DNA of 36,265 nt from Candidatus Mediterraneibacter excrementigallinarum (GTDB taxonomy: Bacteria > Bacillota > Clostridia > Lachnospirales > Lachnospiraceae), in the NCBI GenBank assembly GCA_019120075.1, contig DWVT01000009.1:1-36265 (forward strand). The letters run 5' to 3'. Position numbers and translations under genes: made by a program. The notes beneath the pieces are model-generated. The model ran no database searches, was not told the origin of the DNA, and saw nothing but the letters and a program-made list of their open reading frames with translations. This document shows, piece after piece, positions 16,139 through 32,178 of the stretch (position 1 is the first letter of the stretch; each line of letters opens with the position of its first letter).

Positions 16139-18133
16139 ATGACAATGGAAAACTGGAAGAAATATGAAAAATCCTATTTTATGCCGCCCGAGCCATGCTA
16201 TGACTGGGTGAAGAAGGATGCGATCGAGAAGCATCCGATCTGGTGCAGCGTGGATCTGCGTGACGGAAACCAGGCGCTGATCGAACCGATGAGCCTGGAT
16301 GAAAAACTGGAGTTCTTCCAGCTTCTTCTGGATGTGGGATTCAAAGTGATCGAAGTCGGATTCCCGGCTGCATCTGAGACAGAGTATCAGTTTGTAAGAA
16401 CACTGATCGAACAGAATATGATCCCGGATGACGTCACCATTCAGGTGCTGACTCAGGCGAGAGAGCATATCATCAAACGTACTTTTGAAGCTGTTAAGGG
16501 AGCTCCTCATGCTATCATTCATGTATACAATTCTACATCAGTGGCTCAGAGAGAGCAGGTCTTTAAGAAAGATAAAGAGCAGATCAAGAAGATCGCTACG
16601 GACGGAGCGGAGCTTCTGAAGAAGCTTGCGGATGAGACAAAAGGAAACTTTACCTTTGAGTACAGTCCGGAAAGCTTCCAGGGAACGGAAGTGGACTATG
16701 CTCTTGAGGTCTGCAACGCAGTTCTGGATATCTGGCAGCCGACGCCGGAGAACAAGGCGGTCATCAATCTTCCGACAACGGTGGAAAACGCGATGCCCCA
16801 TGTTTTTGCAAGCCAGGTAGAATATTTCAATAAACATCTGATCCACAGAGACAGTGTGATCCTTTCCCTTCATCCTCACAATGACAGGGGATCCGGAGTC
16901 AGCGACGCGGAAATGGGTATCCTCGCCGGAGCGGACAGGATCGAAGGAACATTGTTTGGAAACGGAGAGCGTACAGGAAATGTGGATATTGTGACTCTGG
17001 CGATGAACATGTTCTCTCAGGGTGTTGATCCGGGACTGGATTTCTCAAATATGAGTGATATATGTGAAGTCTATGAGCGTGTTACGAGAATGAAAGTATC
17101 TCCGAGACAGCCGTATGCGGGCGAGCTTGTGTTTACTGCGTTCTCAGGCTCGCATCAGGATGCCATCGCAAAGGGAATGGCGTGGAAAGAGGAGAAGCAT
17201 CTGGAAAAATGGAGCGTTCCCTACCTTCCCATCGATCCTCAGGATGTTGGAAGAAGATACGATTCCGATGTCATCCGTATCAACAGCCAGTCAGGAAAAG
17301 GCGGCGTAAACTACATCCTGAAACAGGGATTCGGAATCAGTCTTCCGGAGAAGATGAGAGAGGAAGTCGGATATCTGGTAAAAGATGTGTCCGACAAAGC
17401 GCATAAGGAGCTTACACCGGATCTGGTCTATCGTATTTTTGAGGACAATTACATCAATGCAAAACCCGTGTTTACTGTTGATGAATGCCACTTCAAACAG
17501 GAGGACGGCATTGTTGCGGAAGCTACCATCCATCACAATGGAAATGATCTGAAGATCACAGGAGTCGGAAATGGACGTCTTGACGCGGTGAGCAATGCGA
17601 TCAAACATTATTTTGATGTAAGCTATGAGCTCGCTGTTTATGAAGAACATTCTCTGACGAAAGGTTCTTCTTCAAGAGCAGTTGCATATGTGGGCGTGAT
17701 CTGCAACAAGAAGCGGTACTGGGGCGTAGGCATCGATCCGGATATCATCAAAGCTTCCATCGAAGCGCTGGTCGTTGCGGTCAATAAGATCAAAGAGATC
17801 GCTGAGTCTGATGTGAACAAAGATGAACGGCTTCTGGAGATCACAAATTATATCTATGCAAATTATAAAGATGTTACTCTGGATGACCTTGCGGAGAAGT
17901 TTTTCCTCTCCAAGCCCTATCTCTCAAAATATATTAAAGAGAAGTCGGGGATGACATTCGGGGATATCCTTAAGAAGGTTCGGATGAAAAAGGCGCGGGC
18001 AATGTTAAAAAGCAGCAATGCCACTGTCGAGAGCATTGCAGAGTCCGTCGGATATCAGAATGTAGAACACTTTAACAGGGTCTTTAAGAAAATGTATAAT
18101 ATCACGCCGGTCCAGTACAGGAACCGTCACTAA
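16139..18133 (+). CDS. leuA: 2-isopropylmalate synthase fused to a C-terminal AraC-type DNA-binding domain
   Basis: A 664-residue protein. Residues 30-310 are the HMGL-like catalytic barrel of the LeuA type 2 branch: [13 protein letters not shown] with R41 and D42, HPHNDRG (H245, H247) and GNGERTGN. It condenses acetyl-CoA with 2-oxoisovalerate, the first step of leucine synthesis. Residues about 435-555 are the LeuA dimerisation/leucine-feedback domain ([24 protein letters not shown]). Residues 560-664 are a complete AraC-type double helix-turn-helix ([23 protein letters not shown] and [22 protein letters not shown]). Normal type 2 enzymes end near 560. The frame is continuous across the joint. 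Starts at ATG 16139 or 16145. The leader (15978-16138) is AT-rich with AAAAAAG-type repeats. Confidence 0.93.
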
Positions 18134-18134
18134 A

Positions 18135-18630
18135 CAGGGACTGTCTGTGGGAAGTCCGCCAGAATAGATGTATTGCCCTCAGACACACTTCCGTTCGGAA
18201 AACCGCGCAGCGGTACATAAGATCGCAAATGACGCGATCTAAGTACCGGCGCGGTTTTAACGTTCTTCGAGCAACACATCTATTCTGGCAGGGCTGTCCC
18301 AAACGGCAGTCCAGGTTCAGGAACGGCCGGGAGAACGCGCTTTCGCGCTGCTCCCGAGTTACTGGTGCCGAGAATATAAAATTGACAGATCAGAAGGGTC
18401 TTTTTGGCTGAACGGTAAAACTGCCGCAGTCAAAAAAGTCCCTTTTTCTTCTGCAAATTTCCCTGCCGTCCGATCTGCCGGAGCGGGGAGCAGCCCAGCC
18501 GGAGAGAGAGGTTGTCTAAGGACCGTTAAACCAATGCCGGCACTTAGAGCGCGTCCTTTGTGCTCTTACGTGTCCGCTTCATTGGTTTCCGAGCGGGAGC
18601 GTGTCCGCAGACAACCTCTCCCTCCGGCTG
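18135..18630 (+). repeat. Structured repeat element, copy 1 (candidate non-coding RNA)
   Basis: Fills most of the gap after leuA. Module A: GGGAC/GTCCC (18137, 18296), GCCAGAATAGATGT with ACATCTATTCTGGC (18158, 18276), AAAACCGCGC/GCGCGGTTTT (18199, 18249), CGGTAC/GTACCG (18211, 18243), AGATCGC/GCGATCT (18220, 18234). Module C: CGGGAG/CTCCCG around CGCG/CGCG (18328-18356). Module D: terminator-like stem (18396-18442). Module B: outer stem 18496-18517 with 18609-18630 (21 of 22 pairs), GGAC/GTCC (18520, 18603), AAACCAATG/CATTGGTTT (18528, 18580), GGCAC/GTGTC (18539, 18570), AGAGCGC/GTGCTCT (18546, 18560). The same modules, in order, recur at 30620-31149. No protein is encoded. Whether it acts as RNA or as a DNA cruciform is inference. 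Confidence 0.75.
18396..18448 (+). terminator. Terminator-like stem within structured element copy 1 (module D)
   Basis: GGG, a T run and GGCTG (18396-18410) pair with CAGTC, an A run and CCC (18427-18442), followed by TTTTT (18443-18447). A small CGG/CCG hairpin sits on top. It probably ends the leuA transcript or the element's own RNA. Confidence 0.6.
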
Positions 18631-18659
18631 ACGCCCTCTCCCGCCAAATCGCACAAAAT

Positions 18660-29821: not shown

Positions 29822-30628
29822 ATGAGTATTACCGGAATTATTTTGGCTGCTGTTGTTGTCGGCGGCACAGGACTTTTTATCGGCGTCTTCCTCGGAATTG
29901 CAGGGAAAAAATTTGCCGTAGAGGTGGATGAAAGAGAGGAAGCAATCCTGGAAGTGCTTCCCGGAAACAACTGCGGCGGATGCGGATATGCCGGATGCTC
30001 CGGCCTTGCGGCTGCTATTGTGGCAGGAGAGGCTGAGGTGGGCGGATGTCCCGTTGGAGGCGCGCCGGTTGCCGATAAGATCGGAAAGATCATGGGTGTG
30101 GATGCAGGAGCGCAGGAGAGAAAAGTTGCGTTTGTAAAATGTGGAGGCACCTGTGAGAAAGCAAAGACAGAATATGAATACTACGGGATCAAAGACTGTA
30201 TCATGGCCAGCCAGATGCAGGATGGCGGTGCAAAGGGATGTGAATATGGATGTCTCGGGTATGGTTCCTGCGTAAAGGCGTGTCCTTTTGACGCGATCCA
30301 CATCGTGGACGGAATCGCTGTTGTTGACAAGAACGCCTGCAAAGCCTGCGGTAAGTGTGTTGCCGTTTGTCCGAAGCATCTGATCGAGCTGATCCCATAT
30401 AAACAGAAGACATTTGTACGGTGTAATTCCAATGAAAAAGGAAAAGCACTTATGTCTGTCTGTGAAGTCGGGTGTATCGGCTGCCGCCTGTGCGAGAAGA
30501 ACTGTGAGGCAGGCGCCATCACTGTAAATAATTTCCTGGCGCACATTGATGCGGACAAATGTACGAACTGCGGTTTGTGTGCAGAGAAATGTCCGAGGAA
30601 GATCATTTCGATGCAGGTACAGGGATAA
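29822..30628 (+). CDS. rnfB: Rnf complex subunit B (ferredoxin-side polyferredoxin)
   Basis: A 268-residue iron-sulfur subunit receiving electrons from ferredoxin. An N-terminal membrane helix (3-26) is followed by the Fe-S domain with C51, C54, C59 and C76 (NNCGGCGYAGC), then a CxxxC-rich stretch and 4Fe-4S pairs: YGSCVKACPFD with CKACGKCVAVCP, and CIGCRLCEKNC with CTNCGLCAEKCP. About four to six clusters are expected. The last codons (CAG GGA TAA) are also the first strand of the outermost stem of the structured element that follows, so gene end and element start are one sequence. Confidence 0.96.
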   Translation: MSITGIILAAVVVGGTGLFIGVFLGIAGKKFAVEVDEREEAILEVLPGNNCGGCGYAGCSGLAAAIVAGEAEVGGCPVGGAPVADKIGKIMGVDAGAQERKVAFVKCGGTCEKAKTEYEYYGIKDCIMASQMQDGGAKGCEYGCLGYGSCVKACPFDAIHIVDGIAVVDKNACKACGKCVAVCPKHLIELIPYKQKTFVRCNSNEKGKALMSVCEVGCIGCRLCEKNCEAGAITVNNFLAHIDADKCTNCGLCAEKCPRKIISMQVQG

Positions 30629-31149
30629 TTACGCCGGATGGATATCCTGCTTTCAGGCACGCTTGCGCTTGTAGAACAACGCAGCGGATACATAGGAGCG
30701 CACAATACGCGCTCCAAGTACCGGCGTTGTTCTACAGCCTTTAAGCAGGACATCCATCCGGCTGGGCTTTCCCTGCCGGTAAGAGTTGACGAGTTGGGGG
30801 AAGGGGGCACGCCTTTGGCGCTGCCTTCCCCCTCTGGATTCAGGACAAAAGGAAGGGAGCGTTCCCGGCTGAACAGATTATCTGTAACAGTCGGAAATGC
30901 TCCCCTTTTTTACGCACAAATTTAATCATCTCTTCTACGGTTTCAGGGAGGCAGCGCCGCCCGCGGCGCATCCCTCCCGTCCCCTGTCCAGAAGATCCTG
31001 CCGACTGGAAAAAGCCAAGCCGGAGGCATCCGTTGTCTAAGGGCCGTTAAACCAATGCCGGCACTTGGCGTGCGTCCTTTGCACGCTTATGTGTCCGCTG
31101 CATTGGTTTCCGAGCGAGAGCGTGCCCGCAGACAATGGATACCTCCGGC
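30620..31149 (+). repeat. Structured repeat element, copy 2 (candidate non-coding RNA)
   Basis: Same modules and order as copy 1. A: CAGGGA/TCCCTG (30620, 30770), a 19-pair stem 30633-30652 with 30743-30762, GTAGAACAACGC/GCGTTGTTCTAC (30671, 30724), CGG-A-TAC/GTACCG (30685, 30718), GGAGCGC/GCGCTCC (30695, 30709). C: GGGGGAAGG/CCTTCCCCC (30796, 30824). D: GGGAGC/GCTCCC (30855, 30899), T run. An extra GC-rich hairpin (about 30945-30979) is absent from copy 1. B: outer stem 31019-31038 with 31130-31149, GGGC/GCCC (31041, 31124), AAACCAATG/CATTGGTTT (31049, 31101), GGCAC/GTGTC (31060, 31091), GCGTGC/GCACGC (31068, 31081). It lies between the convergent rnfB and apbE. No gene is encoded in this gap. 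Confidence 0.75.
30855..30911 (+). terminator. Terminator-like stem within structured element copy 2 (module D)
   Basis: GGGAGC, TTCC and CGGCTG (30855-30871) pair with CAGTCG, GGAA and GCTCCC (30888-30904), with an ACAGA/TCTGT tip and a TTTTTT tail. It would also end the Rnf transcript. Confidence 0.7.
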
Positions 31150-31176
31150 GGATGCTATATCCAAACGACAGGGATA

Positions 31177-32178
31177 TCACTGCGTCAGGGGCAGATCCTC
31201 CGTGGACAGATGCAGTTCATAGTCATCCGTTACAAATACAGCCTCAACGCCGTCCAGACTCCGGATCAGTTCCATCCCTTTTTCCAGTCCCAAAGCATAG
31301 CATGTAGTGCTCAGGGCGTCTCCGTTCACAGAACTGTCGGAGATGATAGTGACCTGATACAGATTGTTTTGAACAGGGTAGCCTGTAGAGGGATCCAGAA
31401 TGTGATGATAAATGATCCCGTCTTTTTCAAAATAGCGTTCATAATTTCCGGAAGTGACAACAGACTGATCATTCACATCCAGAACGGCGATGGTTGTTCC
31501 GTCCGGTTCAAAGGGCTTTTGAAGACCGACTCGGAAGGGCGTGCCGTCATAGCGCTCACCGACTGCAAGCATATTTCCACCAAGGTTGATCAGGGCGTGC
31601 TCCACGCCTTCACTTTCCAGATATTCTTTCAGGCGGTCTGCTATATAGCCTTTGGCAATACCGCCAAGGTCGATCTTTGCCATAGGATCAGTCAGAGTGA
31701 CAGTATTTCCCTCCACTTTGACATTATGGTAATCAATATGTGTGACTGCATCCGCCAGAGTTTCAGGATCCGGAAGATATTTTTCTTCGTTGTCGGTAAA
31801 GTTCCACAGCTCGCTGGCGGAAGCAATGGTAATGTCAAAATATCCGTGAGAGATATCTCCGTATTCTAGACCGAGCCGGATCAGCTCCGCTGTTTCATCT
31901 GATACAGTGACAGGCTGTCCCGCTGACGCGTTGATCTTTGATATTTCACTGTCCTCAAGAGTACGGCTGAACAGATGCTCGTAGCGGTTACAGAGTTCTT
32001 CGCAGTGATCCAGGACTTCTCTCGTTGTGCCCCAGGCCTCGACCGTTACCACAGTGTCAAAATACATTCCCGTCATACTGAGTGACTCACTCTGTTTTGG
32101 CGTTGTACATCCGGAAATCAGCAGAGCGGATACGACAGCTGTGAACAGCGGCAGCGCAGTGTTTCTTTTTTTAGTCAT
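31177..32178 (-). CDS. apbE: FAD:protein FMN transferase (ApbE), lipoprotein
   Basis: A 333-residue lipoprotein: signal peptide with lipobox LISGC (C24). The ApbE fold shows MTGMYFDTVVTVEAWG, FSRTLEDSEISKINA, GYFDITIASASELWNF, KIDLGGIAKGYIADRL, LINLGGNMLAVG and HHILDPSTGYPV. It moves FMN from FAD to a threonine of target proteins outside the membrane; RnfD (T152) and RnfG (T177), encoded upstream on the other strand, are the evident targets. Start ATG 32178 has GGGAGGGAG upstream; the longer frame to 32235 crosses the promoter and is rejected. Confidence 0.96.
   Translation of the reverse strand: MTKKRNTALPLFTAVVSALLISGCTTPKQSESLSMTGMYFDTVVTVEAWGTTREVLDHCEELCNRYEHLFSRTLEDSEISKINASAGQPVTVSDETAELIRLGLEYGDISHGYFDITIASASELWNFTDNEEKYLPDPETLADAVTHIDYHNVKVEGNTVTLTDPMAKIDLGGIAKGYIADRLKEYLESEGVEHALINLGGNMLAVGERYDGTPFRVGLQKPFEPDGTTIAVLDVNDQSVVTSGNYERYFEKDGIIYHHILDPSTGYPVQNNLYQVTIISDSSVNGDALSTTCYALGLEKGMELIRSLDGVEAVFVTDDYELHLSTEDLPLTQ

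What the first reader, a model, noticed from the sequence alone, without database searches (positions are those of the whole stretch)
18135..18630. Half-kilobase multi-stem element after leuA, with a second copy 12.5 kb away
Seen directly: copy 1 contains four modules (A, C, D, B), built from at least ten inverted repeats nested in each other. Copy 2 has the same modules, order and orientation. Unpaired blocks are kept (TACATA, AAGTACCGGC, GCTGAAC, AAATTT, TTGTCTAAGG, GTCCTTT, TTTCCGAGCG), while stem sequences differ but still pair. I know of no Rfam family I can match with certainty. It may be an undescribed large structured RNA, or a non-autonomous mobile element that forms cruciforms.
Basis: partly seen in the sequence, partly recalled or inferred. 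Interest (0 to 1): 0.9.

Follow-up and report, generated by a model that had tools for sequence, protein, structure and literature searches.

The report
Structured-end mobile elements at gene ends
The half-kilobase block behind leuA is one copy of an apparently undescribed family of small mobile DNA elements of gut Lachnospiraceae, whose ends each fold into a large RNA-like structure and which, in some species, sit exactly at the ends of genes.

Summary
The window's copies match no Rfam family. The unit covaries strongly (38 of 49 pairs change on both sides; 24 sequences) and carries a GNRA-type loop. The own genome holds 31 units; 61 of 150 sampled genomes of its family have it. No match in the phage, plasmid and viral collections searched.

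It is mobile: sites lack it in relatives, and one other species (G374) holds 20 near-full-length copies of a sharply bounded ~615-bp version. That version has our unit at one end and Rfam's TwoAYGGAY RNA at the other, both facing outwards; four further G374 elements with the same termini have our unit at both ends.

In G374 the element's terminal TAA is the host gene's stop codon in 30 of 36 readable ends, and one element starts at the base after the tmRNA gene. In G020 11 of 11 readable ends lie within 2 nt of a stop; in G411 only 2 of 11.

Best reading: a non-autonomous modular mobile element recognised by folded single-stranded ends and tolerated as a 3'-UTR/terminator cassette. The mover is unknown; Y1, IS630-type DDE and reverse-transcriptase genes do not track it. 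A domesticated 3'-UTR RNA is the main rival.

The parts
18131..18133 (+). stop codon TAA of leuA(-AraC HTH); left limit of copy 1
   Evidence: leuA homologues without the element end at the same codon position
18154..18295 (-). copy 1, unit A (core match to model R1; outer arms reach to about 18134 and 18312)
   Evidence: 127.5 bits
18328..18356 (.). copy 1, module C, small G+C-rich hairpin
   Evidence: sequence, by eye
18392..18449 (.). copy 1, module D, stem-loop followed by a T run on the + strand (terminator-like, inferred)
   Evidence: z -5.4 on +, -1.1 on -; the simple terminator scan, limited to loops of 3-8, found none
18492..18632 (+). copy 1, unit B (core; outer arms about 18470-18655)
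   Evidence: 141.0 bits
30626..30628 (+). stop codon TAA of the rnfB-like gene; left limit of copy 2
30629..30768 (-). copy 2, unit A
   Evidence: 152.6 bits
30794..30836 (.). copy 2, module C
   Evidence: sequence; resemblance to copy 1 by eye
30848..30912 (.). copy 2, module D, terminator-like stem-loop plus T run
   Evidence: z -5.7 on +, -4.7 on -; the simple scan found none
31013..31153 (+). copy 2, unit B
   Evidence: 146.3 bits
31177..31179 (-). stop codon of the convergent apbE gene; right limit of copy 2

Best explanation
It is a non-autonomous, modular mobile element. Each end is a large hairpin unit whose base lies at the element's terminus and whose folding strand reads outwards, so that each strand of the element has the functional fold at its own 3' end. 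An unidentified enzyme acting in trans recognises the folded single strand (RNA or ssDNA; unresolved) through conserved loops and terminus, not through the stem sequence. This leaves stems free to drift as long as they pair and lets different end modules (this unit with several stem types; TwoAYGGAY) be swapped. The element settles at gene 3' ends, displaces the simple terminator there, and serves the host as a structured 3' UTR/terminator, which makes it harmless and lets it persist. Shown: repeated discrete copies and presence/absence, modularity, fold, orientation, placement. Inferred: recognition in trans, single-stranded intermediate, terminator role.
For: Discrete repeated element with exact ends at unrelated loci in G374. 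Sites without it in relatives at the copy-1 and copy-2 loci. Neighbouring units: 33 (-)(+), 1 (+)(-), 8 tandem. Fold. GNRA-type loop in 99 of 107 and 99 of 104 distinct model-found units and 23 of 24 BLAST-found ones. Folding strand: G-T 34 vs A-C 14 (p 0.006), RNA MFE lower on the unit strand in 18 of 24. Interchangeable ends in G374: unit plus TwoAYGGAY, both outward, in 20 of 20 copies of one composite picked by similarity to it; unit at both ends with the same termini in L354, L355, L356, L362. Placement: G374 30 of 36; G020 11 of 11 ends with a detectable gene; L356 element starts at the base after the tmRNA gene. LeuD, IlvC and PotD, complete at the C-terminus by their profiles, end exactly at the element's TAA.
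Against: No mobilising gene found. No target-site duplication beyond the terminal TA was seen by eye. Stop-exact placement is not general: 2 of 11 ends in G411, G002 mixed, and Mediterraneibacter copies lie at varied distances. Transcripts of the adjacent genes carry the complement of the folding strand at the near unit, so an RNA role needs read-through or outward transcription. DNA folding energies show no clear strand preference (14 of 24, p 0.12). G-U pairs are few (4-5% of cells, about half of them one conserved pair), which hairpin-templated correction could explain. In-situ compensation is matched by broken pairs.
Confidence: 0.6

Rival explanations
1. A host 3'-UTR RNA (ribosome-termination structure, 3'-end protection, or protein sponge) that selection keeps behind genes; mobility is ancient and incidental.
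For: Same-locus presence in five genomes of the genus at copy 1, with three two-sided compensatory pairs in unit A, G000 vs G007. Position directly behind stop codons. Structures behind stop codons are widespread and affect re-initiation (PMC7518266, abstract and outline seen). A CsrA-sponge role has been proposed for TwoAYGGAY (PMC4333381, passage seen).
Against: Similar copies behind unrelated genes in G374 and G020; at the rnfB locus 12 of 29 loci read have only a short intergenic; broken pairs also occur at orthologous copies (2 in unit A G000 vs G007, 3 in unit B G000 vs G494).
Confidence: 0.22
2. Stem covariation comes from hairpin-templated (quasi-palindrome) correction, not from selection on a folded molecule; the element is a plain palindromic MITE.
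For: All four Watson-Crick pair types common with few G-U intermediates; transversion double changes in situ.
Against: Internal loops, junction, GNRA-type loop and a conserved G.U pair are kept across genera; correction should erase them.
Confidence: 0.13
3. REP/REPIN-type element moved by a Y1 tyrosine transposase (RAYT/TnpA).
For: Inverted doublets, hairpins, intergenic places.
Against: Y1_Tnp in 33 of 61 unit-bearing and 53 of 89 other genomes; none found in G374, G411, G348, G394 (draft genomes).
Confidence: 0.03
4. TA-targeting MITE of an IS630/mariner transposase.
For: G374 and G411 termini begin with TA.
Against: DDE_3 in 1 of 16 unit-bearing and 1 of 10 unit-free genomes; G020 ends abut TGA as well as TAA.
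Confidence: 0.02

Closest known systems
TwoAYGGAY RNA (Rfam RF01731)
   Same: Occupies the opposite end of a G374 element type, same outward orientation, long outer stem with a multi-hairpin head; function unknown; listed from human gut, gamma-proteobacteria and Clostridiales (table passage of PMC2864571).
   Different: The window's copies do not match RF01731, nor do 16 own-genome loci; no AYGGAY hairpin pair seen by eye.
REP / BIME / REPIN with RAYT transposase
   Same: Palindromic intergenic repeats in single, doublet and tandem form.
   Different: Unit ~140 nt rather than 20-40 bp (PMC3733652, listing and passages); no GTAG/CGTC end tag by eye; stems free and loops fixed; no Y1 association.
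Bacterial MITEs (ERIC, RUP, Correia) and BOX elements (all recalled)
   Same: Small, non-autonomous, structured, intergenic; BOX is modular.
   Different: Each end is a complex conserved fold; exact gene-end placement in two species; no known transposase.
Integron attC sites (recalled)
   Same: Structure recognised rather than sequence, bottom strand folds, sits behind a stop codon.
   Different: Inverted pairs between ordinary chromosomal genes; R boxes and IntI were not looked for.
Ribosome termination structures (PMC7518266, abstract and outline)
   Same: Stable structure directly behind stop codons.
   Different: Described as a feature of many genes, not as one mobile homologous family.

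Membership tests
Any Rfam 15 family (window copies) | score at or above gathering | tested here: not met
   window 0 hits; 16 own-genome loci 0 hits; at E<=10 only weak sub-threshold hits, mostly microRNA families
TwoAYGGAY RNA RF01731 | match above 43 bits for the window's units | tested here: not met
TwoAYGGAY RNA RF01731 | match above 43 bits at the other end of the G374 composite | tested here: met
   20 of 20 loci, 62-101 bits; loci were picked by similarity to one composite
REP/REPIN | associated RAYT (Y1) transposase | tested here: not met
REP/REPIN | short (20-40 bp) palindrome tagged by GTAG or CGTC at one end | tested here: not met
   unit is ~140 nt; definition from PMC3733652; tag judged by eye
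MITE | small, no coding capacity, discrete repeated copies with constant inverted termini | tested here: met
   (G374)
MITE | target-site duplication | tested here: inconclusive
   none beyond a terminal TA seen by eye
MITE | cognate autonomous transposon | tested here: inconclusive
   Y1, DDE_3 and RVT_1 not associated; other families untested
IS605/IscB omega-RNA (HEARO) or IS110 bridge RNA | RNA next to its nuclease/recombinase gene | not tested
   such genes were not searched for; Rfam gave no hit in the window
Integron attC | R'/R'' boxes and IntI nearby | not tested
   -
Intrinsic terminator | G+C stem plus T run (module D) | tested here: inconclusive
   fold and T run by eye; the automatic scan found none

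The most novel reading that the evidence does not exclude
These elements read RNA 3' ends or translation stops: an RNA-level (retro-type) process joins the folded element to the 3' ends of mRNAs at stop codons, or of mature RNAs such as tmRNA, and writes the product back, replacing the intergenic stretch between two convergent stop codons. TwoAYGGAY and the new unit would then be the recognition structures of an unknown class of gene-end-homing element.
Probability: 0.1. Interest if true: 0.95.

Novelty: new variant of a known kind. Interest (0 to 1): 0.72.

Why it matters
It adds a structured unit of RNA-like type that Rfam 15 did not recognise in the window, found in 61 of 150 sampled genomes of a major gut family. 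It gives TwoAYGGAY, an RNA family listed in 2010 and still of unknown function, a concrete setting in one species: one end of a mobile element. It also raises a testable puzzle: how an element comes to start exactly at the stop codon of intact housekeeping genes such as ilvC and leuD, or at the end of the tmRNA gene.

Tried and rejected
One 0.5-kb RNA: rejected, A and B are on opposite strands. Known Rfam RNA for the window copies: rejected (also 104). Phage, plasmid or viral origin: no match in viral contigs (one exact pattern), phages or plasmids (unit B, blastn). Autonomous version with an internal transposase: none seen; the longer interiors of L120 and L099 were read by eye and L352 by ORF list. 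Y1, DDE_3 and RVT_1 as mover: no association. Sites without the element for G374: it is the only species of its genus held. First attempt at the copy-2 locus used a wrong reading frame and was redone. In one search the G512/G501 rows were taken on the wrong strand and are not used. Unit A of copy 2 in G000 is 73-74% identical to the orthologous units of G494 and G007 but unit B about 96%, so the many two-sided changes of unit A are read as module exchange, not in-situ evolution. Literature: searches listed no description of this unit (open-licence PMC only; listings seen, few papers opened); one search found TwoAYGGAY papers, read in passages.

Rows dropped: model R1 used 24 of the 27 units first found (L037, L042 and one L039 unit left out). 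One search used 98 elements (76 single, 22 pairs) typed, leaving out units near contig ends, weak ones and most near-identical copies; orthologous copies remain. One search shows only ends that I picked as 50 nt or less from a stop. One search left out antisense hits, L095 and L096 (same places as L140 and L128) and rows with one unit per locus. Searches scanned 10 proteins each of the 19 listed.

Full report
WHAT IS THERE. Copy 1 begins at the leuA stop codon (TAA 18131-18133) and ends before a downstream M24-type peptidase gene (ATG 18724). Copy 2 lies between the stop codon of an rnfB-like gene (30626-30628) and that of a convergent apbE gene (31177-31179). Both fold far better than shuffled sequence. 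Modules A and B are one ~140-nt unit in opposite orientations. Between them lie small G+C-rich hairpins (C) and a stem-loop with a T run (D), which looks like a terminator although the simple scan did not list it.

THE UNIT. From 24 of 27 units first found in the own genome, 49 pairs were predicted, 38 with changes on both sides. 96.2% of 1170 cells are paired; slid controls give 35-50%, and 0 of 500 shuffles reach the observed value on any of five measures. Some stem positions show all four Watson-Crick pairs in similar numbers; loops and one apical G.U pair are kept. A 4-nt loop is GNRA in 99 of 107 and 99 of 104 distinct sequences (found and aligned with the model, which leans towards it; six of the exceptions have no letters there) and in 23 of 24 of the BLAST-found set. 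As RNA the unit strand folds better in 18 of 24 (p 0.007); as DNA in 14 of 24 (p 0.12). G-T exceeds A-C mismatches 34 to 14 (p 0.006) after leaving out one conserved G.U pair and one poorly aligned pair. So a folded single strand of that orientation appears to be what is kept; RNA versus ssDNA is open.

DISTRIBUTION. Own genome: 31 units at E <= 1e-13. 15 of 41 genomes in the relatives search, own included; 4 of 299 in a phylum sample, own included, all four of the same family; 61 of 150 in a family sample, own included (stricter filters above 40 genomes). No match in viral contigs, phages or plasmids.

ARRANGEMENT. Of 42 neighbouring unit pairs closer than 1300 nt, 33 are (-)(+), 1 is (+)(-), 8 are tandem. 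In 76 single units the outer (3') side faces a gene's 3' end in 58, a 5' end in 15, unknown in 3; 47 of the 58 lie within 50 nt of the stop. The inner side gives 50, 22 and 4 (simple ORF caller, 8 singles lie inside an ORF call).

PRESENCE AND ABSENCE. At the leuA locus the element is orthologous in G512, G501, G494 and G007; G002 has a unit-bearing element with another terminus at the same stop codon (L084). Species read without it have short intergenics (G006 148 nt, G019 108, G013 144, G515 191), and G020, G004 and G495 have long palindromes without the unit, by eye (30 loci fetched, not all with both genes on one contig). At the rnfB/apbE locus, of 29 loci read, 4 carry this element (G494, G007, G512, G501, the last two with unit B partly replaced), 12 have 63-156 nt, G004 and G495 have another palindrome running from stop to stop, and 11 lack apbE nearby (with sequence).

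G374. A ~615-bp element recurs with exact limits: 20 near-full-length places at 80-100% identity, the query included. The terminus TAAACTGYAGNTTA has 45 forward and 36 reverse matches, 0 in the reversed control; palindromic sites count twice. Several end classes with different stems share this terminus and combine. In four elements (L354, L355, L356, L362) model R1 finds the unit at both ends.

LINK TO TwoAYGGAY. In 20 of 20 further places picked by similarity to the composite of L240, one end is the unit and the other TwoAYGGAY (62-101 bits, gathering 43), on opposite strands and both reading outwards (more). These are copies of one composite, so the count shows constancy, not independence. 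TwoAYGGAY was not found in 16 own-genome loci nor in 16 loci of other genomes, so the pairing is known from one species. In 2010 the family was listed as probably RNA and not cis-regulatory (table passage, PMC2864571), while Rfam now types it Cis-reg; a CsrA-sponge role was proposed (passage, PMC4333381).

GENE ENDS. Of 59 distinct G374 termini, 36 have a frame of at least 80 codons running in: 30 use the terminal TAA as stop, 4 the second frame (one of these is an inner repeat, one ambiguous), 2 the third (p 9e-10 against one third). Eight of the rest have a gene stop within 80 nt upstream and 15 have none. Genes so ended include LeuD, IlvC and PotD, whose profiles are matched to within a few positions of their ends. 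One element starts at base 638 of L356, the tmRNA gene ending at 637. In G020, six right and five left ends lie 0-2 nt from TAA or TGA; the twelfth has no gene detected (termini with small variants aligned by eye). G002 is mixed and G411 shows 2 of 11, so the rule is lineage-specific. No mechanism for it is shown.

IN-SITU EVOLUTION. At the leuA locus unit A differs between G000 and G007 by three two-sided compensatory pairs, one G-U change and two broken pairs; unit B between G000 and G494 by one, two and three. This supports upkeep of the fold at a fixed place only weakly.

MOVER. Y1_Tnp: 33 of 61 unit-bearing versus 53 of 89 other genomes, none found in G374, G411, G348 or G394. DDE_3: 1 of 16 versus 1 of 10. 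RVT_1: 9 of 16 versus 6 of 10. None fits; draft genomes may miss genes.

JUDGEMENT. A new family of modular non-autonomous elements with structured, interchangeable, outward-facing ends. It is like REPINs and MITEs in habit but fails the REP tests made here (short tagged palindrome, Y1 association). The gene-end placement and the link to an orphan Rfam family are the surprising parts.

Noticed in passing
16139-18133: LeuA (2-isopropylmalate synthase) carries a C-terminal AraC-type HTH domain (HTH_18, residues 584-663); its last 199 aa are about 92-98% identical in the relatives' loci read, so the fusion is real and may link leucine synthesis to regulation.
   Followed up: partly
L280, L285, L306, L307, L309, L318, L321: Other long palindromic stretches, seen by eye, abut the same leuA or rnfB-like stop codons in other Mediterraneibacter genomes; these gene ends look like repeated landing sites.
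   Followed up: partly
L356:281-638: In G374 one element begins at the base after the tmRNA (ssrA) gene.
   Followed up: partly
L245:1414-1928, L246:1113-1745: Head-to-tail arrays of three and four units at 187- and 164-nt spacing in G447.
   Followed up: no
L039:1846-2296: Interior of one pair holds a short hydrophobic-peptide ORF, resembling a type I toxin module (by eye).
   Followed up: no
30629-30768 versus L300, L301: Unit A of copy 2 was apparently swapped for another subtype at a fixed site (73-74% identity against about 96% for unit B).
   Followed up: partly
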